A stretch of DNA of 64,000 nt. Origin: Yoonia tamlensis. GTDB lineage: Bacteria > Pseudomonadota > Alphaproteobacteria > Rhodobacterales > Rhodobacteraceae. The notes below the pieces were generated by a model. That model worked only from the letters and a program-made list of their open reading frames with translations. It was not told the origin of the DNA and ran no database searches. Within the stretch, counting starts at the first letter, position 1; each line of letters opens with the position of its first letter. The stretch lies in the NCBI RefSeq assembly GCF_900115105.1, contig NZ_FOYP01000002.1, positions 186,001-250,000 of the forward strand. Direction: 5' to 3'. This document shows positions 54 to 13,002 of the stretch, one piece after another. The translations under genes and the position numbers were made by a program.

Positions 54-1856
54 TCAGTGATGTCGCAGGATTTCTTCGATCTTGTCATGCTCGGCAACAA
101 AGTGGCCAGGTGCAACCTCTTGTAATTGCGGAACATAGTCGGTTTGACCTGCGCGCAGTTTGCTGGGCAAAAACCGCAGCGCCGCCTTGATATCCATTGG
201 CGACGGCAAATCGCCAGGCAATGTGATGCGCTTGCGGGCGCGCTCGGCCACGGGGTCCGGAATCGGCACCGCCGAAATAAGCGCCTGCGTATAGGGGTGC
301 TGTGGCGTGGTGCAGATTGCCTTGCTGCCCGACAGTTCGACCATGCGCCCTAGATAGAGCACCATGATCCGGTCGGAAATGTCGCGCACCACCGAAAGAT
401 CATGCGAGATGAACAGCATCGACATGCCAAATTCCTGCTGAAGTTCCTTGAGCAGTTTGATGATCTGGGCTTGGATCGACACATCAAGCGCCGATACGGC
501 CTCGTCGCAGATGATCAGTTTCGGGCGGTTGATCATCGCGCGCGCGATCCCGACCCGCTGGTTTTGCCCGCCCGACAATTCGTGCGGGTAGCGGTTGTAC
601 ATCGACGCGTCCAAGCCGACGCGGTGCATCATGTCTTGGACCTCAGTACGCCGTTCCTGCGCGGTCATATCAGGGCGGAAGGTGCTAAGCGGTTCGGCGA
701 TTGACGCGGAAATTGTCATGCGCGGATCAAGACTGGCAAGCGGATCCTGAAACACGATTTGCAGGTCCTTGCGGGCCTTGATCATGTTTTTCTTGTCGAG
801 CGAAGTCAGGTTCGTTCCCAGCCAGCTGACCGAGCCTTGGGTCGGCTCGACCAGCCGCAGAACCGCGCGCGCAAGCGTAGATTTGCCGCAACCGGATTCC
901 CCCACAACGCCCAAGGTTTCGCCTTGATGCAGCGTAAAGCTGACACCATTGACCGCGCGCAGCGGCACCGTCTTGCGGATAAGACCGCCGCCCATTTTGA
1001 TCGGGAAATGGACCTTGATGTCGTCCGCTTGCAAAATCGGTTTACTAAGATCGACCTGTTTTTCCGGCGCGTCGGTATCAATGCGCGGCATCGCGTCCAG
1101 CAATTTGCGGGTGTAATCGTGGCCGGGGCGCGCGAAAATATCTTCGACGCTGCCTTCTTCGACAAAGGCGCCCAGACGCATGACCTGCACACGGTCGCAC
1201 ATGCGCGCAACGACCCCCATATCATGGGTGATCAAGGCAACGGCGGTCTGGTGTTCGGCCTGCAAGGTCGCGATCAGATCCAGCACATCAGCCTGCACGG
1301 TCACGTCCAGCGCCGTGGTCGGTTCATCCGCGATTAGCAGTTTGGGGTCGCAGAGCATCGCCATCGCGATCATAACCCGCTGACGCATCCCGCCTGACAG
1401 CTCGTGCGGGTATTGCTGCAAACGCCGTGCGGCGTCCGGAATGCGGACCTTGTCCAGCCAGTCAAGGCAGCGTTTTTGCGCTTCGCGGTCGGACATTGCA
1501 TGGTGGACCTTTAACACTTCGGCCATTTGCTGGCCAATGCGCAGGTGCGGGGTCAGCGCGGTGAGCGGGTCTTGAAAGATCATGCCCACCTCATCGCCGC
1601 GAATGGCGTTCAATGCTTTGGGGGCCAGATTCAGAATTTCTGAATCGCCCAGTTTCACCGAACCACGCGCCGTCCCGTTGCCCGCAAGCAAACCCATCGC
1701 CGCCATAAAACACTGGCTTTTGCCAGAGCCGGATTCACCCACGATGCCAAGGCATTCGCCCTTGGCGATTTCCAATGAAATTCCGCGCACCGCGTTGACG
1801 GTGCCATCAGCGGTATCAAAATCGACATACAGGTCTTTGACCGAAAAAACGCTCAT
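54..1856 (-). CDS. Oligopeptide ABC transporter, fused OppD-OppF ATPase
   Basis: This 600-residue protein has two ABC ATPase domains in one chain and would power peptide import through the permeases encoded just upstream. The first domain has Walker A GESGSGKS at residues 40-47 and signature LSGGMRQR. The second has GESGCGKS near residue 315 and LSGGQNQR. Each half ends in the C-terminal oligopeptide-transporter extension (for example PQHPYTQAL). Most Opp systems encode OppD and OppF separately, although fused forms (GsiA-like) are known. I chose the ATG at 1856 rather than an ORF start at 1988, because the extra residues are a frame shadow of the permease gene and AAAGGA lies before 1856. 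One base separates it from the permease stop. Confidence 0.93.
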
Positions 1857-1857
1857 C

Positions 1858-2778
1858 TTATCTGTCCTTTGGGTCAAGTGCGTCACGCAGGCCATCGCCG
1901 ATAAAGAACATGGTGATGATGATGGTGACGTAGAAGGCAAGCGGGAATGCGAGTTGCCACAGGGTGCCATAGGCCATTGTGCCCGCACCTTCGGAAATCA
2001 GTTTGCCCAGTGATGTGCTGGGTTCGGAAATGCCAAGCCCGAGAAACGAAATAAAGCTTTCCGCGAGGATCATATCAGGCACCAACAAGGATGCATAAAC
2101 GATCACAACCCCCATCAGGTTGGGCAGTATATGCCGGATAATGATCATCGTTTCTGACACGCCGCTGGCGCGCGCGGCTTCGATAAATTCGCGCCCCTTG
2201 AGCGCCATGGTCTGCGCCCGTACGATCCGCGCCATTGTCAGCCATGACACAGCCCCAAGCGCGATAAACAAGGTGGTAAACGACCGCCCCGCGATCACAA
2301 GGATCAGGATCAGCACCAGAACCAGTGGAATGGCCAAAAGAATATCAACAATCCGCATCATCACGGAATCCAGCCAACCGCCATAGAACCCCGCGATCAC
2401 ACCCCAAGCGATCCCGATAATCAGCGCCATACCCGCGCCGATCAGCCCCACCATCAATGACGTTCCCGTGGCCTGAATTGTCCGTGAATATAGATCACGC
2501 CCAAGATCATCGGTGCCGAAAAAATGCCCCGTTTGCAGGGACGGCACGCCACCGGCACCCATATTGCCCCAGTCGATCGTTTCATTGTCCCAGACGGCAA
2601 AAAGCGGTCCCAAAAGGACAAAAAGCACAACCAGCGCCAAAATGCCCAAGCACACAAGCGCGGCCTTGTTCCGGAAGAACCGGTCGCGCGCATCGCGCAT
2701 GAGCGACCTGCCCTGAACGGCCGTGTGGTGGGTCATGTCAGACGCCTGCGCCTGAGCTTTTTTATAGCGTTGAAACAC
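1858..2778 (-). CDS. oppC: Oligopeptide ABC transporter permease OppC
   Basis: This is a 306-residue inner-membrane permease of the DppC/OppC family. The N-terminal cytoplasmic stretch runs into a first membrane segment near residue 45. A periplasmic loop follows with the family motif [13 protein letters not shown]. The binding-protein-dependent transport domain ends with the EAA loop ([21 protein letters not shown]) that contacts the ATPase. It lies 4 bp downstream of oppB and 1 bp upstream of the ATPase gene, so it belongs to the operon oppA-oppB-oppC-oppDF. The OppC call rather than DppC follows from the OppA-type binding protein. Confidence 0.93.
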
Positions 2779-2782
2779 GGGG

Positions 2783-3706
2783 TTAGTACCTTATCTTTGG
2801 GTCGAACCAGGCATATGAAAGGTCGGTCAGCAGGTTCACCACCACCGTCAACGTGCCATATAGAATTGTCACCCCCAGCAGCACGGCATAGTCGCGCGAC
2901 AGGGCAGAGTTCACAAAAGACTGACCAAGACCACCGGTCGAGAAATAGAGATCAACAAAGACCGACCCAGTCAGCACATAGACAAACACCGGACCAAGAT
3001 ACGAGATCACCGGCAGCAGGGTCGGTTTCATTGCGTGCCGCCAGATAACAGTACGTTCAGGCAGGCCTTTGGCGCGGGCGGTGCGGATGAAATTGGCGTT
3101 CATCACCTCAAGCATGGATGACCGCGTGATCCGTGCAATCGACCCCATGAAGGATGTGGAAAGCGCGATCACGGGCATAATCAGATATTGCCATTGGCCG
3201 CCGTACCAGCCACCGCCGGGCAGGATGCCAAGCCACAGCGTAAAGGTGAGGATCAGGATCGGCCCCATGATGAAATTGGGCAGCGCTTGGGCCAGAATGC
3301 CAAGGCTCACGGCGAAATAATCGATCCATGTGTTGTGCCGGATGGCTGCGGCGACGCCAAGGCTAACGCCGACAACCGTGGCCGCCAGAAACGACAGACT
3401 GCCGTAGGTCAGCGAGATCGGAAAGCCCTGCGCAATAATGTCGTTCACATCGCGGTCTTTGAAAACAAAACTAGGGCCAAAATCGAAATGCAGCACGATA
3501 TTGGTCAGATACTGCCAAAGCTGCACGATAAGCGGTTGATCCAACCCGTAGCGCGCTTCGATGTTGGCCAAAACGACAGGTGGCAACGGCCGTTCGCCAT
3601 TGAACGGGCCACCCGGTGCCAGATGCATCAAAAAGAAGCAGGCAACCACGAGGATCAAAATTGTGGGGATAGCGACAAACAGCCGCCGGATGGTGAAACT
3701 GAGCAT
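2783..3706 (-). CDS. oppB: Oligopeptide ABC transporter permease OppB
   Basis: This is the second inner-membrane permease, 307 residues from the chosen start. The N terminus LSFTIRRLFVAIPTILIL is the usual OppB/DppB first membrane helix. The loop HLAPGGPF and the EAA region (RTARAKGLPERTVIWRHAMKP) are also typical. The start at 3706 has AGGA seven bases upstream. The in-frame ATG at 3736 would fall inside a hairpin after oppA and adds residues not expected in the family. The gene is separated from oppA by that hairpin, so it is probably expressed below oppA. Confidence 0.93.
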   Translation of the reverse strand: MLSFTIRRLFVAIPTILILVVACFFLMHLAPGGPFNGERPLPPVVLANIEARYGLDQPLIVQLWQYLTNIVLHFDFGPSFVFKDRDVNDIIAQGFPISLTYGSLSFLAATVVGVSLGVAAAIRHNTWIDYFAVSLGILAQALPNFIMGPILILTFTLWLGILPGGGWYGGQWQYLIMPVIALSTSFMGSIARITRSSMLEVMNANFIRTARAKGLPERTVIWRHAMKPTLLPVISYLGPVFVYVLTGSVFVDLYFSTGGLGQSFVNSALSRDYAVLLGVTILYGTLTVVVNLLTDLSYAWFDPKIRY

Positions 3707-3720
3707 GGGATTCCTGACAT

Positions 3721-3750
3721 AAAACGCCGCCCCCAAGGTCAGGGGCGGCG
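3721..3750 (-). terminator. Hairpin with T-run between oppA and oppB (attenuator)
   Basis: Read on the minus strand, GCCGCCCC and its complement form a perfect 9-bp GC stem (arms 3742-3750 and 3725-3733) followed by TTTT. It lies 12 bases past the oppA stop and about 15 bases before the oppB start. This is the form of an intrinsic terminator that lets a fraction of transcripts continue into the permease genes. Confidence 0.75.
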
Positions 3751-3762
3751 TGGGTTCAGATG

Positions 3763-5388
3763 TTATTCAGCGATCTTATACAGATTGCGTGAATACCAGT
3801 TTTGCTCAACGTTACCTACAGGCCAGTTACCAACATCGCTGTCCATCATGTAGACGCCAGCATAGTGGTAGATCGGAATGACAGGCATATCTGCTGCGAT
3901 GATGCCTTCGACTTCGGTATAAAGGCCCGAAACATCAGATGACATTTTGGCTTCGGCCAGCAACGCATCGAGTTCGGGGTTGTTGTATTTACCGTCGTTA
4001 TAGCCCGAGCGGCTGTCGAGCAGGTCAAGGAAGGTAGAGGCTTCGTTATAGTCGCCACACCATGCGCCACGGGCCAGTTCAAAGTCCTGGTTGCCACGTG
4101 TTTCAAGGAAGACCTGCCATTCAAGGTTCGCAAGCGATGCTTCGACACCCAGTGTTTGCTTCCACATCTGGCTCATCGCGACCGCGACTTTGTTGTGGGC
4201 TTCGGATGTGTTGTAGATCATCTCGAATGTCAGCGGATTGTCAGGGCCGTATCCTGCCTCTGCCAACAGCTCAACAGCCTTCGCGTTGCGCTCTTCTTGG
4301 GTCATCGCCTGCATGTCGGTCGCAGGTGGTGTGAAACCAGCCACAGCCGCAGGGGTGAATGTATAGGCCTCTGGTTGACCACCGGCGAGAACGTTTTGCG
4401 TGATGATGCTGCGATCAACCGCAAGTGCCAGCGCCTGACGGACGCGCACATCTTTGAACGCTTCCGGGCCCGAATCGCTCAGGTTGAATGTGTAGTAATA
4501 GTTACACAGACGCGGAAAGCTGATCGCGATGCCGGGGTATTCTTCGCTCAGGCGCGGGAACTGGCCAGCGGGGACTTCGGTGCGGTCCAATTCACCGGCT
4601 TGGAAACGTGTCAGGGCGACGTTTTCGTCGTTGATCACAAGGGCGACAACTTTTTCGATGATGGTGTTGTCATTGTCCCAATACATCGGGTTGCGTTCAC
4701 GCACAGAGCGTTCCAGCGGCAGGTGTTCGGTCAGCACATAGGCGCCGTTCGATACGATGTTTTCAGGCTTGGTCCAGTCCGCGCCAAATTCTTCGATCAC
4801 TGCGCGCGGCGCAGGGAAGGTTGTCGAATGTGTGGTCATCTGCGGGAAATATGGCAGTGGGGCTGACAGTGTGACTTCGAAAGTCAGATCATCAATCGCG
4901 CGCACACCCAGATCGGTTGGTGGCAATTCGCCGGCAATAACTTCGGCAGCATTGGCGATCGACATCAGTTCAATGAACCACTGGTAAGGCGATGACAGCG
5001 CCGGATCGGCGGCACGTTGCCACGCATAGACAAAATCGCCAGCGACGACAGGTTCGCCGTTCGACCATTTTGCATTGTCGCGCAGGGTAAATGTGTAAAC
5101 TGTGTTGTCTTCGTTGACGGTATAACCCGTTGCAACACCAGGCTCGAGATTGCCGTCTTCGTCCTGATTCATCAGGCCTTCGAACAGATCGCGGACGATC
5201 TCTGCACCAGAAACATCCTCAACAACTTGCGGATCGACAGAGCTGTGCTCGTCCAGAACGCGGTAGGTGAATGTTTGGTCAGCGGCAAGCGTGACACCTT
5301 CGGGCACATGGCTTTCGGCCAGAACGGGGCCTGCGAGCATGGTGCTGGCAAGCAGCGCCGAGATCATAAGTTTGGATGTATTTTTCAT
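3763..5388 (-). CDS. oppA: Oligopeptide-binding protein OppA (periplasmic)
   Basis: This is a 541-residue periplasmic peptide-binding protein of the SBP_bac_5 family. A Sec signal peptide covers residues 1-24 (lysines, hydrophobic core, cleavage after GPVLA). Close matches to E. coli OppA include the stretch NYYYTFNL, the run DVRVRQALALAVDR and the region WCGDYNEASTFLDLL. It would bind peptides of mixed sequence and pass them to OppBC. RBS GGGAG lies 11 bases before the ATG. It heads the opp operon and starts 322 bp after the RiPP dehydrogenase gene, in the same direction. That raises the untested idea that the transporter handles the RiPP product or its fragments. Confidence 0.95.
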   Translation of the reverse strand: MKNTSKLMISALLASTMLAGPVLAESHVPEGVTLAADQTFTYRVLDEHSSVDPQVVEDVSGAEIVRDLFEGLMNQDEDGNLEPGVATGYTVNEDNTVYTFTLRDNAKWSNGEPVVAGDFVYAWQRAADPALSSPYQWFIELMSIANAAEVIAGELPPTDLGVRAIDDLTFEVTLSAPLPYFPQMTTHSTTFPAPRAVIEEFGADWTKPENIVSNGAYVLTEHLPLERSVRERNPMYWDNDNTIIEKVVALVINDENVALTRFQAGELDRTEVPAGQFPRLSEEYPGIAISFPRLCNYYYTFNLSDSGPEAFKDVRVRQALALAVDRSIITQNVLAGGQPEAYTFTPAAVAGFTPPATDMQAMTQEERNAKAVELLAEAGYGPDNPLTFEMIYNTSEAHNKVAVAMSQMWKQTLGVEASLANLEWQVFLETRGNQDFELARGAWCGDYNEASTFLDLLDSRSGYNDGKYNNPELDALLAEAKMSSDVSGLYTEVEGIIAADMPVIPIYHYAGVYMMDSDVGNWPVGNVEQNWYSRNLYKIAE

Positions 5389-5710: not shown

Positions 5711-6466
5711 TCAATCGTGGCCTTTCTTGTCATGGCCTAGCCCAAGCGCATAGATGATCGCCTCTGACTGGCCATCAAGCCCGATGAGCCGGTTCAGCAC
5801 TGTGTCGGCATATCCGCCCAGACACAGGGTCGCCAAATCCCGCTCGGCCGCGGCCAGACAGATATTTTGCGCAACGTGGCCTGCTTCGATCAGAACATAG
5901 CGATACCCGCGCGGCCCATATTTGCGTTGGGTACGGGCAAAGACTGCGCCAAGACACAAGACAACCGGCGCTTGGGCGACAAATGACCATGTCAGGAATG
6001 CATCGCGCGCCTGATCTTCCCAATCGCCCTGCTTGATCAGCGCCAGGTCATCCGCCTTGCTGTCATAATGGTAAATGCCTTTTGCCAACCCGTCGACATT
6101 GCGCACCAGCGCATAAACCTCGAGCGGATAAAGCCCGCCAGCCGAAGGCACAGGACGGCGCAGCAGTTGCGTGCCGTCAGCCAAACGATCAGGGCCAAGC
6201 ACCTGATACCCCGCCCGCAGCATTGCCGCGAGATCACACAACGCAAGCGGATTATCCGCAAAGGCGCGCGTTGATCTGCGTCCGGCGGCCAACCCTTCGA
6301 TTGCCCCCCGCGCAGTATCGGGCAGGGCAATGCGTTGCGCATGCGGATCGCTTTTGGTTTCTTGCGAAAACGGCGCGTTTGGCATCTGGTTTTCGTCGAT
6401 CCACGGCTCCGAATTCAGGTGAAACAGCTGCGAAAGCCCGTATGGGTCGTTAACATTATTGCGCAT
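5711..6466 (-). CDS. SagB/ThcOx-type FMN dehydrogenase (azoline oxidase) of the RiPP locus
   Basis: This 251-residue protein is a nitroreductase-fold, FMN-dependent dehydrogenase of the SagB type. In known clusters the family oxidises thiazolines and oxazolines to thiazoles and oxazoles on a precursor peptide. Visible marks are the FMN-site RRSTR near residue 64, the family motif VPSAGGLYPLEVYAL, and AGHVAQNICLAAAERDLAT followed by CLGGY near the C terminus. It starts 3 bp after the YcaO stop, so the two are translationally linked. The full domain is present, which suggests the final product carries aromatic azoles. The C-terminal residues GHDKKGHD are basic and His-containing and of unknown relevance. 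Confidence 0.88.
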   Translation of the reverse strand: MRNNVNDPYGLSQLFHLNSEPWIDENQMPNAPFSQETKSDPHAQRIALPDTARGAIEGLAAGRRSTRAFADNPLALCDLAAMLRAGYQVLGPDRLADGTQLLRRPVPSAGGLYPLEVYALVRNVDGLAKGIYHYDSKADDLALIKQGDWEDQARDAFLTWSFVAQAPVVLCLGAVFARTQRKYGPRGYRYVLIEAGHVAQNICLAAAERDLATLCLGGYADTVLNRLIGLDGQSEAIIYALGLGHDKKGHD

Positions 6467-6469
6467 GAT

Positions 6470-7768
6470 CTAGGCCAGTGGATGCGGGCATTGGTTTAGC
6501 CCGTTTTCGGTCAATTGGGTCGTTCGCAGCCCCCATTTCACGGGGGCCTCGAACAGGCGGTCACCGCCAAGCCGCACCTGACCATGGCCGAAATGGATCG
6601 GCTGCATGCCCGTCGCGATAACCCGCACAACCCTTGGCCCGAGCGGCGCAATATCAGCCGTGGTAATATCCGCATAAGCCACGCGCGCACCCGCGTTCAC
6701 GGCCCCTGCAATGGTGAAATCCAGCAGGTCATCGCTGTTGGTAACGGGCGGGCGCGGCAGATCGTCCAGCGTGACCTGCGCGCCCGTACTGGTCAGAAAA
6801 TCGAATTCGCCGGCATGTGCGGGGATCGCGTGAAACAGCGGATGATCGTCAATGCTGCGCACATCTGCATAGGTTTTCAGGCGGGTCTGATAGTCGCCCC
6901 CTTGCATCCGCGCGGCCATTCCCGGGCGCAGCTGGCACAATTCGAACATGGCTTTGTCAACCGCCGTTGCCGGATCGCAATCGCACCCCAACCCGACGAC
7001 CCGACTGCCGTTTTGTTCTTGGGCGATGGCCATGATCACATAGGGGGCCTGATCGGTGTAAAGCGAAAGCAACCCGATATTCACCCCGAACCGTTCATAA
7101 TGGCTGATGATTTGCGCAGCATAGCAACCCGACTGTGGCGTTTCGATCGTTGTCGCGGGCAGCTTGTTCAGCCATGTGATCATAAAGGCGTCACGCTCGA
7201 TTATCTCGTTCAGGCCGCCCAGAATGGCATGGTTCAGGTCCCTACCAGCAGCAAGCCCGTTTGAGGTCACAGCCGTGAAATAATCCGCAGCTCTTGGGGG
7301 TGGCCCGACCAGATAAACGAGCGACGCGGGCATATCGACAGCCTGCCCCGAGGAGAGATCGACCCCTTTGATCCAAGTTGTTTCGCTTTCGGGGGACCAT
7401 TGGTGAAATGGCAATCCGCCAGCATATTGTGCGGCCGAATAAAGAACCGTTTCGGGCGGCGTGATTGCATTGGCGGGCACGGGCCCGATTTGCAGGCGGC
7501 TTGGGTCCCAGTGAAAGGCGGCATAGCGTTCCATCGCTTCGCCCAGCGCAGCCAGTTTGGCCGCGTCCTCGGTCAGCCCCTTTCCGCCCGTCAGGCGCAT
7601 GGCAATCGGTAGGTTCCGGAAATTGTAATGCGTCAGCGTAGCGTTCCACAGATGCGGCGGGCTGGGTTCTTGGGGGCCGCGTGTTTGGGGGGATAGATCT
7701 GTCACGATCCCGCTGCGCCTGCTGACCAAAGCTGCAGTCAGCCGGATGGCGTCCTGACTGTCGTTCAT
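6470..7768 (-). CDS. YcaO-domain cyclodehydratase of the RiPP locus
   Basis: This 432-residue YcaO protein belongs to the family that uses ATP to cyclise Cys, Ser or Thr side chains onto the backbone of a precursor peptide. The ATP/Mg motifs are present: GEAMERYAAFHWD, GLNEIIERDAFM and ATAVDKAMFELCQLRPG. The C terminus ends CPHPLA, a reduced version of the Pro-rich tail (PxPxP) found in azole-forming YcaO enzymes, which supports heterocyclisation rather than another YcaO chemistry. The start at 7768 overlaps the stop of the ThiF-like gene as ATGA; an ORF start at 7804 would lie well inside that gene. It works with the ThiF-like partner, which delivers the leader peptide. Confidence 0.92.
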   Translation of the reverse strand: MNDSQDAIRLTAALVSRRSGIVTDLSPQTRGPQEPSPPHLWNATLTHYNFRNLPIAMRLTGGKGLTEDAAKLAALGEAMERYAAFHWDPSRLQIGPVPANAITPPETVLYSAAQYAGGLPFHQWSPESETTWIKGVDLSSGQAVDMPASLVYLVGPPPRAADYFTAVTSNGLAAGRDLNHAILGGLNEIIERDAFMITWLNKLPATTIETPQSGCYAAQIISHYERFGVNIGLLSLYTDQAPYVIMAIAQEQNGSRVVGLGCDCDPATAVDKAMFELCQLRPGMAARMQGGDYQTRLKTYADVRSIDDHPLFHAIPAHAGEFDFLTSTGAQVTLDDLPRPPVTNSDDLLDFTIAGAVNAGARVAYADITTADIAPLGPRVVRVIATGMQPIHFGHGQVRLGGDRLFEAPVKWGLRTTQLTENGLNQCPHPLA

Positions 7769-8886: not shown

Positions 8887-8962
8887 CTGTGCGCCATTGT
8901 TCCAGTGATTTCCATGCGTCTTGCACCATGCACCCAAGGCCCAATCGTGCAATATCTATTGA

Positions 8963-8990
8963 TTTGGCCCGCCGTACCCAGCAGGCCAAA
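8963..8990 (-). terminator. Stem-loop between RiPP precursor and enzyme genes
   Basis: TTTGGCC (8963-8969) and GGCCAAA (8984-8990) form a 7-bp stem around a 14-base loop, about 30 bases after the precursor stop and before the ThiF-like gene. There is no clear T-run after the stem on the minus strand, so it may be an RNA-stability hairpin or a weak attenuator that keeps precursor mRNA in excess, as is common in RiPP operons. Confidence 0.4.
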
Positions 8991-9020
8991 AATCGCGGCA
9001 TTTCTTGGCAGCGTCAGCTA

Positions 9021-9392
9021 TTAACTGTCCGGCTTCTTGTCACAGCAGCAACCCTGCGCAGGCATACACGCACCCGCTGCTGGCATACACGCACCCGCGG
9101 CGGGCATACATGCACCTGCGGCTGGCATACATGCCCCCATACAGGCGCCGGCCGCTGGCATGCACGCACCCATACAAGCACCTGCGCTATGCATGCACGC
9201 ACCCATGCAAGCACCCGCAGCAGTCATGCATGCACCCATGCACGCACCTGCAGCGGGCATGCATGCACCGATGGCGGCTGCGACTTTATGATAGGCGGCC
9301 AGCTCTGCTGCGCTAAAATATCCTTGGCCCAGCTTGTCTTCCAATTCAGAGACGCGCATCTCAAGGCTTTTTGTTTCGCTATTATCTGTCAT
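9021..9392 (-). CDS. Cys-rich repeat RiPP precursor peptide (putative thiazole peptide)
   Basis: This is a 123-residue peptide. Residues 1-41 form a charged, helical leader (SLEMRVSELEDKLGQGYF then SAAELAAYHKVAAA). Residues 42-113 hold 12 copies of Gly-Ala-Cys-Met, mostly joined by Pro-Ala-Ala. The end is GCCC then DKKPDS. The 15 cysteines are at 44, 51, 55, 62, 66, 73, 77, 84, 88, 95, 102, 109 and 115-117, with spacings alternating 7 and 4, then settling at 7. Ser/Thr are almost absent from the core, so Cys is the likely heterocyclised residue. The ATG at 9392 has AGGGA six bases upstream; a longer ORF from 9560 lacks support. It heads an operon with the ThiF-like, YcaO and SagB genes. I do not recognise a characterised homologue. 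A soft-metal-binding role is an alternative reading of the CM repeats. Confidence 0.85.
   Translation of the reverse strand: MTDNSETKSLEMRVSELEDKLGQGYFSAAELAAYHKVAAAIGACMPAAGACMGACMTAAGACMGACMHSAGACMGACMPAAGACMGACMPAAGACMPAAGACMPAAGACMPAQGCCCDKKPDS
9054..9269 (-). repeat. In-frame tandem repeats encoding GACM units
   Basis: Imperfect tandem repeats of 21 bp (7 codons) and 33 bp (11 codons) lie within the precursor gene. The codons vary at third positions and at the residue after Met (Pro, Thr, His or Gly) while Gly-Ala-Cys-Met is kept in all 12 copies, which implies selection on the peptide. Slippage at such repeats could change unit number between strains. Confidence 0.9.
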
Positions 9393-9654
9393 GGTAATCC
9401 CTGAAAAAACAATATTGACCAGAGCGTTGCACAATTTGGATTCTTGGTCAAATATCAAGGTTAACCGGGCCGCAGACAATGCGCAGGCATCGTTCACACA
9501 ATGGCGATAGTCGCATTTGCTTTTGTCGCGCTCTGCAAGAAACCTAGTTTGCGGTGCCACCCTATGCTAGGAATTAAGGAACACTTTGGTTACGGCCGGC
9601 GCACCCGAAGCCAGATAAGGGACTGCGCCAACCACGTTTCGGGGATTGATTGCG
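9393..9654. promoter_or_regulatory. Divergent promoter region, RiPP precursor / cyclase-ATPase
   Basis: This 262-bp gap separates two divergent genes. On the precursor side an inverted repeat TTGACCA (9415-9421)/TGGTCAA (9445-9451), with half-sites 30 bp apart, lies 23-59 bp before the start codon and could be an operator. AGGGA precedes the precursor ATG. On the other side GGGGA lies nine bases before the ATG at 9655. No convincing -10 was assigned. Confidence 0.4.
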
Positions 9655-12600
9655 ATGCCTAACATTGAAGGCTGGTTGGCTGAAATCGGCCTTCAGAAAT
9701 ACGCGCAGGTCTTTGCCGAGGCCGAAATCGATGTCGAAACACTGCCCGAATTGCACGAGGAAGACCTGAAAGAACTAGGGTTGCCATTGGGGCCGCGCCG
9801 CAAAATCTGGGGCGCAATTGCGCGTATGCGCGCCGGCGCGACGGGCCGGCATGCGCATGTTTTTCCTGATCCCGCAAATCTGCCAGACGATGCCCATGCA
9901 GAACGGCGCCACCTGACGGTGATGTTTGTTGATCTTGTCGGATCGACCGAAATGGTCATGCGCATGGATGCCGAAGACATGCGCGGCGTTATTTCCAAAT
10001 ACCAGCATGCTGTCGCCGCGGTAGTAGACGAATACAAAGGTTTTGTGGCCACGCTTTTGGGGGATGGCATGCTGTGCTATTTCGGCTGGCCGCATGCCAA
10101 TGAAGACGACACAGACCGTGCGCTGCGAGCAGGCCTTGCCATCATCGAGGCTACAAAAAAGATCGCAACGCCTGATGGGACGGCGCTTGCGTCGCGGGTT
10201 GGCATTGCTGCGGGGGTTGTGGTTGTTGGCGATCTGATCGGCGGCGGCGCACGTCAAGAAGCCGCAGTCGTCGGTGAAACCCCGAATTTGGCGGCCAGAT
10301 TGCAAGCAGTCGCCGAACCCAACCAACTGGTCGTGCCCGGTGAAATGCTGGCGCATCTGGGAAGTACATTTGTGCTTGTTCCCTTGGGCGCACACAATCT
10401 TAAGGGGATCGGCCGCCCGATCGAGGCTTTTGTCGTGCAAGGTGAAACCACGGTAAAAAGCCGGTTCGAGGCGCGCAGAGCCGGAACGCTTATCCCGATT
10501 GTCGGCCGTGATGCCGAAATCCGCAGGGTCTTGCAGCGTTGGGGAAATGCGCAGGCCGGTGACGGGCAAATGATTTTGCTAAGCGGTGAAGCCGGAATTG
10601 GCAAATCACGGACCGTTCAGGCGGTCGTGGATTCAATAGCGCCCGATAGCCATATCCGGCTGACCTATCAATGTTCGCCCTACCACACCGAAAGCGCATT
10701 CTATCCTTTTGCCCAACACCTGAGCTACTCGGCGCAATTTTCCGCGCAGGACACGGTCGATGAACGCCTTGATAAAGTGGAATCGCTGTTTCAAGGGACC
10801 CCGTTAACCCATGCGGTGCTTGCGCATTTGTTGGGGATTGACGGCTCTGCGCGCTATGGCGAAATCGACGAAACACCCACCCAGCAGCGCGCGCAGATGA
10901 TGCAGGCGCTGGTCGAAATCCTGTTGCGCATGGCGCGCGATAAACCCGTGTTCATGGTTTTTGAGGACCTGCACTGGATTGACCCGACTTCGCTCGAACT
11001 GCTTGATTTCATTCTTGCTGCATTGCCCGGGCAGAATATCATGATCCTCGCCACAACACGGCCGCCTTTTGATCATGCATTTGGATCGGCCCGCTGTGTG
11101 ACCCATATTCCACTTGGCCGGCTTGATGAGGCCAAGACGCGCGCCATTGTTGCAAAGCTTACCCAAGGCAAATCCCTGCCAGAGGATATTTTGCAAATCA
11201 TCGCGCGGCGCACTGACGGGGTGCCATTATTTATCGAAGAACTTACCAAGACCATTCTTGAATCTGGCGCCCTGATCGAAGGCGCAGGGAGTTACACGGT
11301 GAACGGGTCGATCCGCGATTTTGCGATTCCCGCAACCTTGCAAGACAGTTTGATGGCCCGGCTTGACCGGCTGGCGCCAATCAAGGAAATCGCCCAGATT
11401 GCCGCCTGTGTCGGGCGCGAATTCGACCATCAGCTGATGGCTGAAATCTGCGACATCCCCGAAGCCGCACTGGACGATGCGCTTGCACGGCTTATCTCCG
11501 CAGAGCTGATCTACAAGCGCGGAATCGCACCCAAAATCCAATATGTGTTCAAACACGCGCTTGTGCGCGATGCCGCATATGAAAGTCTTCTCAAGAAACG
11601 GCGCACGGTTTTTCACAGACGCATTCTTGCCGTGCTCGAGGCCCGACCGGATTCGGCGCCCGAACTTTTGGCGACTCACGCAGAAGCTGCACAGCTTACC
11701 GACCGCGCGATTGTACTTTGGGAAGCGGCAGCCAAAGCGGCGATGGCGCGCCCCGCCTATAAAGAAGGCGAAACCCATTTGCGCCGCGCGATTGCCCTGA
11801 ACGCCCCGACAGCCGCGACCGGTGACAAAGCGGCGCTTGGCATTGCTATTGCGCTCAAGGTCCAGTTGTTCGTCGCGCTTTCGCAGGGCAAGGGGCTTTG
11901 GTCTGACGAAGCGATCGGGACGCTCGAGGATGCACTGGCGCAAGCAGACAAGCATGGCGATACGCCGTTGCGCGGGGATATCATCTATGGGCTGTTGATG
12001 AGCAGCTATTTCCGCGGACGGCTTGAACGCAGCGTCGCACGCGCCGACGAACTAAAGGGGTTGGCCGAAGCATCCGGCGATATCGCGCAGCTATTGGTCG
12101 CAAAACGGCTGGCCGCGATCGGGCGGCTAAAGATGGGCCGCTTTACCGAAGCACAGCCCTATCTTGATGAGGCCGAAGCCCTGAGCGAAAAAGTTGCAAG
12201 CCAGAACCTTGCCGCACGCTTTGGGCATGATCCGATTGTGGGGCTGCAAACTTACCAGTCTTTAGGGGCAACATTTAGTGGCAAGACAGCCCGCGCGAAA
12301 TCCTATCAGCGCAGGGCCGAAAACCGCGCGCGCATTATCGGCCATACCAATACGACCTGCGCGATGCTGGGGCTTTTTGTTATTTGCGCCCACGTTGCAA
12401 ATGATGTTGCCGCGGAAAAGCAGCAGCTGCGCATCCTGCGCCCGATGATCATCGAACACAAAGTCGAATCCTCTCATCTTTGGGCCGAAGCGACCTATGC
12501 TTTGCTACAAATGGCCGAAGGAGATGCCACAGCGCTGGCGACCTATCGCAAGGCCGAAGAGGCGATGCTGGATGCCGGCATTCGCCTGCTTGTTCCTGGC

Positions 12601-13002
12601 AATCGTGTGGTTGCGGCGCGCCGCGCACTGGCGCTGGGTCTGACTGATGACGCCAAAGAACTTGTCGATGCGGCCGAGGCATTGATGAATGACACCGGCG
12701 AAAACAGCTGGAGGCCCGATATCCACCGGCTGCGCGCGGCATTTGCAATTGCCGAAAACGACAGGCCACGCGCGCAAAAACATCTGCTTGAGGCAATTTC
12801 CATCGCGCGGGAGGGTGGCGGTACGCTTTGGCAAATACGAGCAACGATTGATCTGGCACAGCTTTACCAAAGCACGGGGCGCATCAAAGATGCCTTGTGT
12901 CAGATTGAACCCGTTTTCACCATGGTCGCGCCTGGAAACTGCCCGCAAGAACTGGAGGCTGCAAAAGCGCTTAAACAGGCGCTTAGCGCTGCGGTCGCCT
13001 AG
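9655..13002 (+). CDS. SAM domain / class III nucleotide cyclase / AAA ATPase / TPR-like protein
   Basis: This is a 1115-residue multidomain signalling protein. Residues 1-60 are a SAM domain (WLAEIGLQKYAQVFAE, DLKELGLPLGPRRKI). Residues about 85-265 are a class III cyclase domain with metal-site Asp in VMFVDLVGST and in LLGDGMLCYFG and the Asn/Arg of GETPNLAARLQ. An ATPase domain follows with Walker A GEAGIGKS near residue 312 and a Walker B region VFMVFEDLHWID. The last 400 residues look like helical TPR repeats. In related proteins a Lys three residues before the GDG is expected (AKYLGDG); here it is Thr (ATLLGDG), so purine specificity or activity may differ. The ATG at 9655 has GGGGA nine bases upstream; a TTG at 9646 is less likely. 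It is divergent from the RiPP precursor gene, but no functional link is shown. Confidence 0.88.
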   Translation: MPNIEGWLAEIGLQKYAQVFAEAEIDVETLPELHEEDLKELGLPLGPRRKIWGAIARMRAGATGRHAHVFPDPANLPDDAHAERRHLTVMFVDLVGSTEMVMRMDAEDMRGVISKYQHAVAAVVDEYKGFVATLLGDGMLCYFGWPHANEDDTDRALRAGLAIIEATKKIATPDGTALASRVGIAAGVVVVGDLIGGGARQEAAVVGETPNLAARLQAVAEPNQLVVPGEMLAHLGSTFVLVPLGAHNLKGIGRPIEAFVVQGETTVKSRFEARRAGTLIPIVGRDAEIRRVLQRWGNAQAGDGQMILLSGEAGIGKSRTVQAVVDSIAPDSHIRLTYQCSPYHTESAFYPFAQHLSYSAQFSAQDTVDERLDKVESLFQGTPLTHAVLAHLLGIDGSARYGEIDETPTQQRAQMMQALVEILLRMARDKPVFMVFEDLHWIDPTSLELLDFILAALPGQNIMILATTRPPFDHAFGSARCVTHIPLGRLDEAKTRAIVAKLTQGKSLPEDILQIIARRTDGVPLFIEELTKTILESGALIEGAGSYTVNGSIRDFAIPATLQDSLMARLDRLAPIKEIAQIAACVGREFDHQLMAEICDIPEAALDDALARLISAELIYKRGIAPKIQYVFKHALVRDAAYESLLKKRRTVFHRRILAVLEARPDSAPELLATHAEAAQLTDRAIVLWEAAAKAAMARPAYKEGETHLRRAIALNAPTAATGDKAALGIAIALKVQLFVALSQGKGLWSDEAIGTLEDALAQADKHGDTPLRGDIIYGLLMSSYFRGRLERSVARADELKGLAEASGDIAQLLVAKRLAAIGRLKMGRFTEAQPYLDEAEALSEKVASQNLAARFGHDPIVGLQTYQSLGATFSGKTARAKSYQRRAENRARIIGHTNTTCAMLGLFVICAHVANDVAAEKQQLRILRPMIIEHKVESSHLWAEATYALLQMAEGDATALATYRKAEEAMLDAGIRLLVPGNRVVAARRALALGLTDDAKELVDAAEALMNDTGENSWRPDIHRLRAAFAIAENDRPRAQKHLLEAISIAREGGGTLWQIRATIDLAQLYQSTGRIKDALCQIEPVFTMVAPGNCPQELEAAKALKQALSAAVA

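What the first reader, a model, noticed from the sequence alone, without database searches (positions are those of the whole stretch)
9021..9392. Undescribed-looking RiPP precursor with 12 Gly-Ala-Cys-Met repeats and a CCC end
The peptide combines a 41-residue leader with a repetitive core whose 15 Cys follow a 7/4 spacing that becomes a strict 7. The residue after Met varies, but GACM itself does not. Core Ser/Thr are nearly absent, so up to 15 thiazole positions are possible. I know of no characterised azole RiPP with this architecture.
Basis: partly seen in the sequence, partly recalled or inferred. Interest (0 to 1): 0.93.

Follow-up and report, generated by a model that had tools for sequence, protein, structure and literature searches.

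The report
Thiazole-peptide precursor with swappable Ala-Cys-X repeats
This marine bacterium's gene encodes a leader followed by a run of Ala-Cys-Met repeats that three neighbouring enzymes should turn into a string of thiazole rings; related bacteria use the same kind of leader and enzymes but have Phe or Gln in place of Met, and a nucleotide cyclase gene is usually inherited with the set.

Summary
Confirmed. Window 9392..9021 (minus) encodes a 123-residue peptide: 41-residue leader, 12 GACM units, 15 Cys, CCC near the end. An E1-like leader-binding protein, a SagD-type YcaO cyclodehydratase and a SagB-type dehydrogenase follow on the same strand. This is a thiazole/oxazole-modified peptide (TOMM) cluster, so the azole reading is well supported; the chemistry is untested. 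Relatives change the picture. Of 14 precursors found, 12 match KxLEMRVxxLEDK in the leader and 2 diverge from it. In the host genus the core is an Ala-Cys-X array. X is fixed within 7 of 8 peptides but differs between them: Met here, Phe or Gln elsewhere; the eighth is mostly Gln. GACM is thus one version, and CCC was seen only here. A Paracoccus-type branch has other Cys repeats and a radical-SAM methyltransferase. In 56 genomes of the host genus, the same 8 hold E1-like protein and precursor. A divergent SAM-domain/cyclase/ATPase/TPR protein occurs in 7 of those 8 and, as an orthologue, in 0 of the other 48. No NCBIfam model, and no Pfam model over its cut-off, matched the precursor. New variant of a known kind.

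The parts
9021..9392 (-). Precursor peptide gene, 123 aa
9270..9392 (-). Leader, residues 1-41 (MTDNSETKSLEMRVSELEDKLGQGYFSAAELAAYHKVAAAI), conserved in relatives
9063..9266 (-). Core array of 12 Ala-Cys-Met units, residues 43-110
9042..9050 (-). CCC near the C-terminus, residues 115-117; seen in none of the other 13 precursors
9429..9452 (-). Promoter-like element TTTGAC-N13-TGTGC, 60 nt before the precursor start; [TC]GTG[CT] form present in 7 of 7 loci that carry the cyclase, absent upstream of the precursor in 7 of 7 loci where the cyclase was not found
8962..8991 (-). Hairpin (12 pairs) between precursor and next gene; none of 200 shuffles of the gap reached its score; similar hairpins in L001-L003, L020; not better than chance in L021
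7765..8886 (-). E1-like (ThiF fold) leader-peptide-binding protein, TIGR03882; likely start ATG 8886
6470..7768 (-). YcaO cyclodehydratase, SagD type (TIGR03604, 301.7 bits over cut-off 219.25)
5711..6466 (-). SagB-type FMN dehydrogenase (TIGR03605, 132.1 bits over cut-off 78.4)
9646..13002 (+). Divergent SAM domain / class III nucleotide cyclase / AAA_16 ATPase / TPR protein, co-inherited with the cluster in most carriers of the host genus

Best explanation
The locus is a TOMM (linear azol(in)e-type) RiPP cluster with a new precursor family. The E1-like protein binds the KxLEMRVxxLEDK leader and presents the core to the YcaO enzyme. YcaO uses ATP to close Cys onto the preceding Ala carbonyl, giving thiazolines, and the SagB enzyme oxidises these to thiazoles. 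The product would be a regular string of up to 12 (15 with CCC) thiazoles with Met side chains. The array is built so that Ala-Cys is fixed and the following residue is a lineage-specific letter (Met, Phe or Gln). The precursor, the three enzymes and the SAM-cyclase-ATPase-TPR protein are usually inherited together in this genus, and the cyclase most likely regulates or senses the pathway. Shown: genes, conservation, letter rule, co-occurrence. Inferred from family membership: the chemistry. Inferred with little support: what the product does (antibacterial or signalling peptide), and the cyclase's role.
For: Enzyme families over their NCBIfam cut-offs, in an overlapping or abutting row. YcaO aligns with LynD, TruD and MusD, and SagB matches McbC. 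Leader motif exact in 12 of 14 precursors, several genera. Residue after Cys in ACX units: Met 12/12 (window), 19/19, 18/18, 19/19 (L001-L003); Phe 13/13, 5/5 (L020, L023); Gln 19/19 (L022); in L021, whose array contains an assembly gap, 14 Gln, 2 Tyr, 1 Phe of 17 visible. ACX units within one peptide use 3 to 9 different 9-mers that differ only by synonymous codons, so the amino acids and not just the DNA are being kept (L021 not scored). E1-like protein in 8 of 56 genus genomes, precursor in the same 8. Cyclase orthologue in 7 of the 8 and 0 of 48 (Fisher p 3.4e-8, not corrected for relatedness). Cyclase and joined-enzyme data give the same best topology.
Against: No azole has been observed. 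No protease, exporter or immunity gene was recognised in the cluster, so maturation and release are unexplained. In G444 the precursor and cyclase lie about 270 kb from the enzymes. G399 has the cluster but no cyclase match, and none was found in the six Paracoccus-type loci. L021 breaks the strict letter rule. The model of the E1-like protein has low confidence (pLDDT 65.9), and no fold search could be run. A distant cyclase relative (467 bits) occurs in G435, which has no cluster.
Confidence: 0.82

Rival explanations
1. Metal-binding RiPP: the Cys/Met array, modified or not, binds copper, iron or haem for uptake or protection.
For: Cys and Met are copper ligands (established knowledge). A haem/haemoglobin-type TonB receptor lies downstream in L001-L003 (scanned in L001 and L003), with a haem ABC ATPase scanned in L001, and a TonB receptor with a FecCD permease lies beside L054; a similar receptor translation is in L055 and L058. 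The repeat-bearing copper RiPP bulbicupramide also lacks a protease (PMC12538549, abstract and passages).
Against: Met is replaced by Phe or Gln in relatives, neither a typical copper ligand. No TonB receptor was seen next to the window cluster; the neighbour is an Opp-type importer recognised from its translations. No MNIO enzyme, which makes known copper RiPPs, is among the three cluster enzymes. If all Cys become thiazoles, the thiols are gone.
Confidence: 0.15
2. Peptide-cyclase signalling pair: the repetitive peptide is a multivalent ligand that the co-inherited cyclase/ATPase/TPR protein detects, raising a cyclic nucleotide.
For: Tight co-occurrence (7 of 8 against 0 of 48), same best topology, cyclase catalytic Asp, Asp, Asn, Arg kept in 7 of 7 (residue roles recalled), and the precursor lying beside the cyclase in G444 while the enzymes lie elsewhere.
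Against: Co-inheritance fits transcriptional control equally well. No cyclase match in G399 or in the six Paracoccus-type loci. No ligand-binding evidence.
Confidence: 0.15
3. A narrow-spectrum bacteriocin whose varying letter is driven by competition among close relatives.
For: Conserved leader with lineage-specific core and patchy distribution (8 of 56 genus genomes), as in heterocycloanthracin (PMC2674419) and hakacins (PMC4603692).
Against: No exporter or immunity gene recognised; the letters seen need only a few changes on the tree.
Confidence: 0.4
4. Unmodified low-complexity Cys/Ala protein; the neighbouring enzymes act elsewhere.
For: No direct chemistry.
Against: Leader under purifying selection; the precursor is in a YcaO cluster in 13 of 14 loci; identical presence pattern in 56 genomes.
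Confidence: 0.05

Closest known systems
Heterocycloanthracin (TIGR03601), Bacillus
   Same: TOMM enzymes (C, D, B), conserved leader, Cys-rich repeat core whose interleaving residues differ between relatives (CGG versus CWS), precursor often far from the enzymes (PMC2674419, abstract and part 1 of Findings)
   Different: Repeat is Cys-Xaa-Xaa, mostly every 3 residues; here Ala-Cys-X every 4-9 residues with X fixed or nearly fixed per peptide; no NCBIfam match of our precursor; a usually co-inherited cyclase here
NHLP-Burk TOMM clusters with a large Ser/Thr kinase (TIGR03795; kinase/cyclase fusion TIGR03903)
   Same: TIGR03882 protein plus a large signalling protein; our cyclase matches TIGR03903 over profile positions 262-1266 of 1267; the kinase is mentioned in PMC2887384 (passages); that it is the TIGR03903 protein is recalled
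   Different: SAM domain in place of the kinase; score 427.6 below the cut-off 705.75; precursor does not match TIGR03795
Faecalisin and other uncharacterised TOMM groups (PMC4603692, passages)
   Same: Cys-repeat core, separate C and D proteins
   Different: Faecalisin has a Gly linker before the Cys repeat and ABC transporters in the cluster; neither was seen in the window cluster
Bulbicupramide / MNIO copper RiPPs (PMC12538549, abstract and passages)
   Same: Repeated Cys units, conserved leader, no protease
   Different: Modified by MNIO plus DUF2063, not by YcaO

Membership tests
TOMM / linear azol(in)e-containing peptide cluster | YcaO (D) cyclodehydratase gene | tested here: met
   TIGR03604 301.7 bits against cut-off 219.25
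TOMM / linear azol(in)e-containing peptide cluster | E1-like (C) leader-binding partner | tested here: met
   TIGR03882 54.8 bits against cut-off 36.9
TOMM / linear azol(in)e-containing peptide cluster | FMN dehydrogenase (B) | tested here: met
   TIGR03605 132.1 bits against cut-off 78.4
TOMM / linear azol(in)e-containing peptide cluster | RRE-type leader-binding fold in the C protein | tested here: inconclusive
   Predicted order b-b-b-a-a-a in residues 14-86, mean pLDDT of model 65.9; fold search not available
TOMM / linear azol(in)e-containing peptide cluster | Azoles installed on the precursor | not testable with these tools
   needs mass spectrometry
Heterocycloanthracin (TIGR03601) | Precursor matches the family model | tested here: not met
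   0 NCBIfam families at E up to 1
Heterocycloanthracin (TIGR03601) | Cys-Xaa-Xaa triplet repeats | tested here: not met
   Cys spacing 7 and 4
NHLP / Nif11 / NHLP-Burk precursors (TIGR03793, 03798, 03795) | Leader matches the models | tested here: not met
   0 NCBIfam families at E up to 1
TOMM kinase/cyclase fusion (TIGR03903) | Score over curated cut-off | tested here: not met
   427.6 against 705.75
TOMM kinase/cyclase fusion (TIGR03903) | N-terminal protein kinase | tested here: not met
   SAM domain at residues 8-62; no kinase family in the Pfam scan
MNIO-type copper RiPP | MNIO enzyme in the cluster | tested here: not met
   cluster enzymes are ThiF, YcaO and nitroreductase families; the rest of the window was not scanned for it

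The most novel reading that the evidence does not exclude
A modular azole-peptide system in which Ala-thiazole-X polymers carry an interchangeable 'address' residue X, kept uniform along the array and switched as a block in evolution, read by a dedicated SAM-cyclase-ATPase-TPR receptor that turns binding of a multivalent peptide into a cyclic-nucleotide signal.
Probability: 0.12. Interest if true: 0.88.

Novelty: new variant of a known kind. Interest (0 to 1): 0.62.

Why it matters
It adds a precursor family that no NCBIfam model, and no Pfam model above its cut-off, matched. It gives a natural substitution series (Ala-Cys-Met, -Phe, -Gln) on related leaders and enzyme sets, well suited to testing what a YcaO cyclodehydratase tolerates after Cys and why a whole array changes letter together. 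It also links azole peptides to a usually co-inherited nucleotide cyclase in a marine genus, which makes a regulatory or sensing role directly testable.

Tried and rejected
Antisense or other-frame gene: one antisense frame is open in the window, but no antisense or shifted frame is open in any of the 6 relatives scored, while the sense frame is open in 7 of 7 precursors.

Mobile or phage origin: precursor not found in phages (window query) or plasmids (L001 query) by tblastn; E1-like model not found in viral contigs. One P. denitrificans megaplasmid carries the Paracoccus-type version.

Different histories of precursor/cyclase and enzymes: I suspected this from leader similarity and tested three topologies. 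Cyclase and joined enzymes have the same best one; grouping the two Gln genomes is rejected at AU p 0.044 (cyclase) and 0.006 (joined enzymes). The third topology is not rejected by either (0.30 and 0.20). Taken singly, YcaO rejects the Gln grouping (0.018), E1 does not (0.12) and SagB does not (0.068) and slightly prefers the third topology.

Weak hits dropped: precursor matches in 6 of 294 other family genomes at E 2e-4 to 9e-4, E1-like hits under 125 bits in G469, G486, G495, G591, G637, G772, and a second, weak YcaO match in G444 (28.2 bits). G637 has its own TOMM-like Cys-rich ORF with another leader (L050).

A strong sigma-70 promoter was not found by the consensus scan, nor terminators above chance; the conserved element is only promoter-like. 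The hairpin after the precursor is not better than chance in L021 (47 of 200 shuffles as good) and marginal in L022 (8 of 200).

Full report
OBSERVATION. The minus-strand frame at 9392..9021 encodes MTDNSETKSLEMRVSELEDKLGQGYFSAAELAAYHKVAAAIGACM... with 12 GACM, 15 Cys and a CCC six residues before the end. Shuffling the core 20,000 times gave at most 3 GACM. A ribosome-site-like AGGG lies just before the ATG (by eye). The search of the whole genome with the precursor found this one copy.

SURROUNDINGS. After a 134-base gap come three genes on the same strand with a 4-base overlap and a 3-base gap between them. The first is an E1-like protein (TIGR03882, ThiF fold), the second YcaO of the SagD type (TIGR03604), the third a SagB-type dehydrogenase (TIGR03605). 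YcaO aligns with LynD, TruD and MusD, and the SagB protein with CyaGox and McbC. All 13 YcaO proteins compared end in CPHPLA. The 8 E1-like proteins aligned keep GxGxxG and two CxxC pairs. The NxxRQ motif of adenylating E1 enzymes, recalled and not from a call, is not evident in them, which would fit a scaffold rather than an adenylating enzyme. A model of this protein shows b-b-b-a-a-a at its N-terminus, as expected of a leader-binding (RRE) fold, but the model is of modest quality (pLDDT 65.9) and no fold search could be run.

RELATIVES. The E1-like protein led to L001-L003. Leader, enzymes and cyclase are conserved there, but the core is a longer Ala-Cys-Met array with Gly, Asn, Thr or other residues before Ala, and without CCC. 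Genus and order searches added L020 (array of ACF), L021 (ACQ), L022/L033 (ACQ; precursor and enzymes about 270 kb apart on one contig of G444) and L023 (short ACF array, diverged leader). Another branch, in G119, in four genomes of one genus and in a Paracoccus denitrificans megaplasmid, has a related leader and a core of CTIRACTVVQQC-like repeats ending in CGGGCAPGGGGF. It also has a radical-SAM gene, scored in L024 as TIGR03975 C-methyltransferase (720 bits). That makes 14 precursor loci: window, L001-L003, L020-L024, L048, L049, L054, L055, L058 (L055 and L058 precursors are identical). 12 of the 14 match K.LEMRV..LEDK exactly; L021 has Ile for Val and L023 diverges more. 13 of the 14 have the enzymes in the same cluster. 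How common: strong E1-like hits in 2 of 394 family genomes, 8 of 390 order genomes with 570 bits or more, plus 5 weaker ones under 125 bits, 1 strong of 385 class genomes, the window's own, plus 1 weak, 4 of 125 in the Paracoccus-type genus and 8 of 56 in the host genus. These sets overlap.

THE LETTER RULE. In the Yoonia-type arrays every Cys of the array follows Ala. The next residue is constant in 7 of the 8 peptides of this type: Met 12/12, 19/19, 18/18, 19/19; Phe 13/13, 5/5; Gln 19/19. The exception is L021, whose array is interrupted by an assembly gap: 14 Gln, 2 Tyr, 1 Phe among 17 visible units (counted by eye). The Ala and Cys codons, and the Phe and Gln codons, vary synonymously between units: 3 to 9 different 9-mers per peptide. 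So constancy is not only recent DNA copying. The spacers between units vary in sequence. On a tree of the three enzymes the Met genomes group together (100) and the Phe genomes group together (100). The two Gln genomes are not sisters: G430 joins Met with weak support (63) and G444 joins Phe (81) (supports read from the unrooted tree string). Joining the two Gln genomes is rejected (AU p 0.006 for joined enzymes, 0.044 for cyclase), but which Gln genome joins which group is not settled. Three letters need at least two whole-array changes on any tree; ancestral Gln or a repeated gain of Gln are both possible.

THE CYCLASE. The divergent gene 9646..13002 (+) encodes SAM, class III cyclase, AAA_16 and TPR domains (the TPR hit is below its cut-off). 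Its catalytic motifs (FVDLVGST, LLGDGMLC, TPNLxAR) are kept in 7 of 7. It partly matches TIGR03903, the TOMM kinase/cyclase fusion, below cut-off, with SAM where that family has a kinase (the kinase end of TIGR03903 is recalled). Among 56 genus genomes, the E1-like protein occurs in 8, the precursor in the same 8, and the cyclase orthologue (1453 bits or more) in 7 of these and in none of the other 48; a 467-bit relative in G435 is the only other hit at E<=1e-100. The Fisher p of 3.4e-8 ignores relatedness. In G444 the precursor lies beside the cyclase, there on the same strand, while the enzymes are elsewhere. No cyclase match was found in the stretches held of L023 or of the six Paracoccus-type loci.

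CONTROL ELEMENTS. TTTGAC-N13-[TC]GTG[CT] lies 60-64 nt before the precursor in 7 of 7 loci with the cyclase and was not found upstream of the precursor in 7 of 7 loci without it; three of the seven positives (L001-L003) are close relatives. It occurs once in the window, against 0.22 expected, with 21 of 100 shuffles having at least one, so its weight rests on position and conservation. A hairpin of 8-14 pairs starts 17-29 nt after the precursor stop in the same 7 loci, with different stem sequences in different lineages, and one of 15 pairs lies at +100 in L023. Against 200 shuffles of each gap it stands out in the window, L001, L002, L003, L020 and L023 (0-2 as good), is marginal in L022 (8) and is not special in L021 (47); of four Paracoccus-type gaps one (L049, 7 of 200) is marginal and three are not special. 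In the window its surrounding 151 nt fold only moderately better than shuffles (z -1.78, 12 of 200 as good). It may cap or process the precursor message so that precursor exceeds enzyme; this is an inference.

HOW IT MOST LIKELY WORKS. Leader bound by the E1-like protein, thiazoline formation by YcaO, oxidation by SagB, giving an Ala-thiazole-Met polymer. These steps follow from the families and were not measured. No protease, exporter or immunity gene was recognised. The function is open: a bacteriocin-like role is my first guess (about 0.4), then signalling through the cyclase and metal binding (about 0.15 each). The TonB receptors beside L001-L003 and beside L054, L055 and L058 keep metal binding alive, but Met being exchangeable for Phe or Gln speaks against a Met-copper site.

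COMPARISON. The nearest described case is heterocycloanthracin: strain-variable Cys repeats, precursor distant from its enzymes (PMC2674419, abstract and Findings part 1). Our precursor fails that family's model and its triplet spacing. Cox et al. 2015 (PMC4603692, passages) describe hakacins with near-identical leaders and varied cores, and faecalisin with Cys repeats. Literature searches (openly licensed PMC papers only) listed no paper that I recognised as describing this precursor. One search, the search for its strings and for the TIGR03903 name, found one paper (PMC5809485), for the family name alone. Only listings, abstract starts and the passages and sections named were seen.

VERDICT.

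Noticed in passing
L001 9312-11291, L003 9313-13076, L054 3254-5314: TonB-dependent receptors sit beside the cluster in L001-L003 (haem type in L001 and L003, with a haem ABC ATPase gene in L001) and in L054, L055, L058 (with FecCD in L054); none was seen beside the window cluster.
   Followed up: partly
L050 8299-8787: A different Cys-rich ORF (many CxxC-like repeats) upstream of a 796-aa ORF with an E1-like match in G637; looks like another TOMM-type precursor with an unrelated leader.
   Followed up: no
window 54-5388 (-): Opp/Dpp-type peptide importer operon (recognised from translations) after SagB, 322 bases away; G444 also has an SBP_bac_5 protein near its enzyme genes (L033 5297-7303).
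   Followed up: partly
L024 7803-9668, L048, L049, L054, L055, L058: Paracoccus-type clusters have a radical-SAM gene (TIGR03975 C-methyltransferase in L024, the only one scanned; similar translations seen in L048, L054, L055 and L058); their cores end in a Gly-rich CGGGCAPGGGGF-like tail.
   Followed up: partly
L001-L003 precursor residue 23; L021 leader: The leaders of these relatives contain a lone Cys (GCG in L001-L003, GVCF in L021) that the window leader lacks.
   Followed up: no
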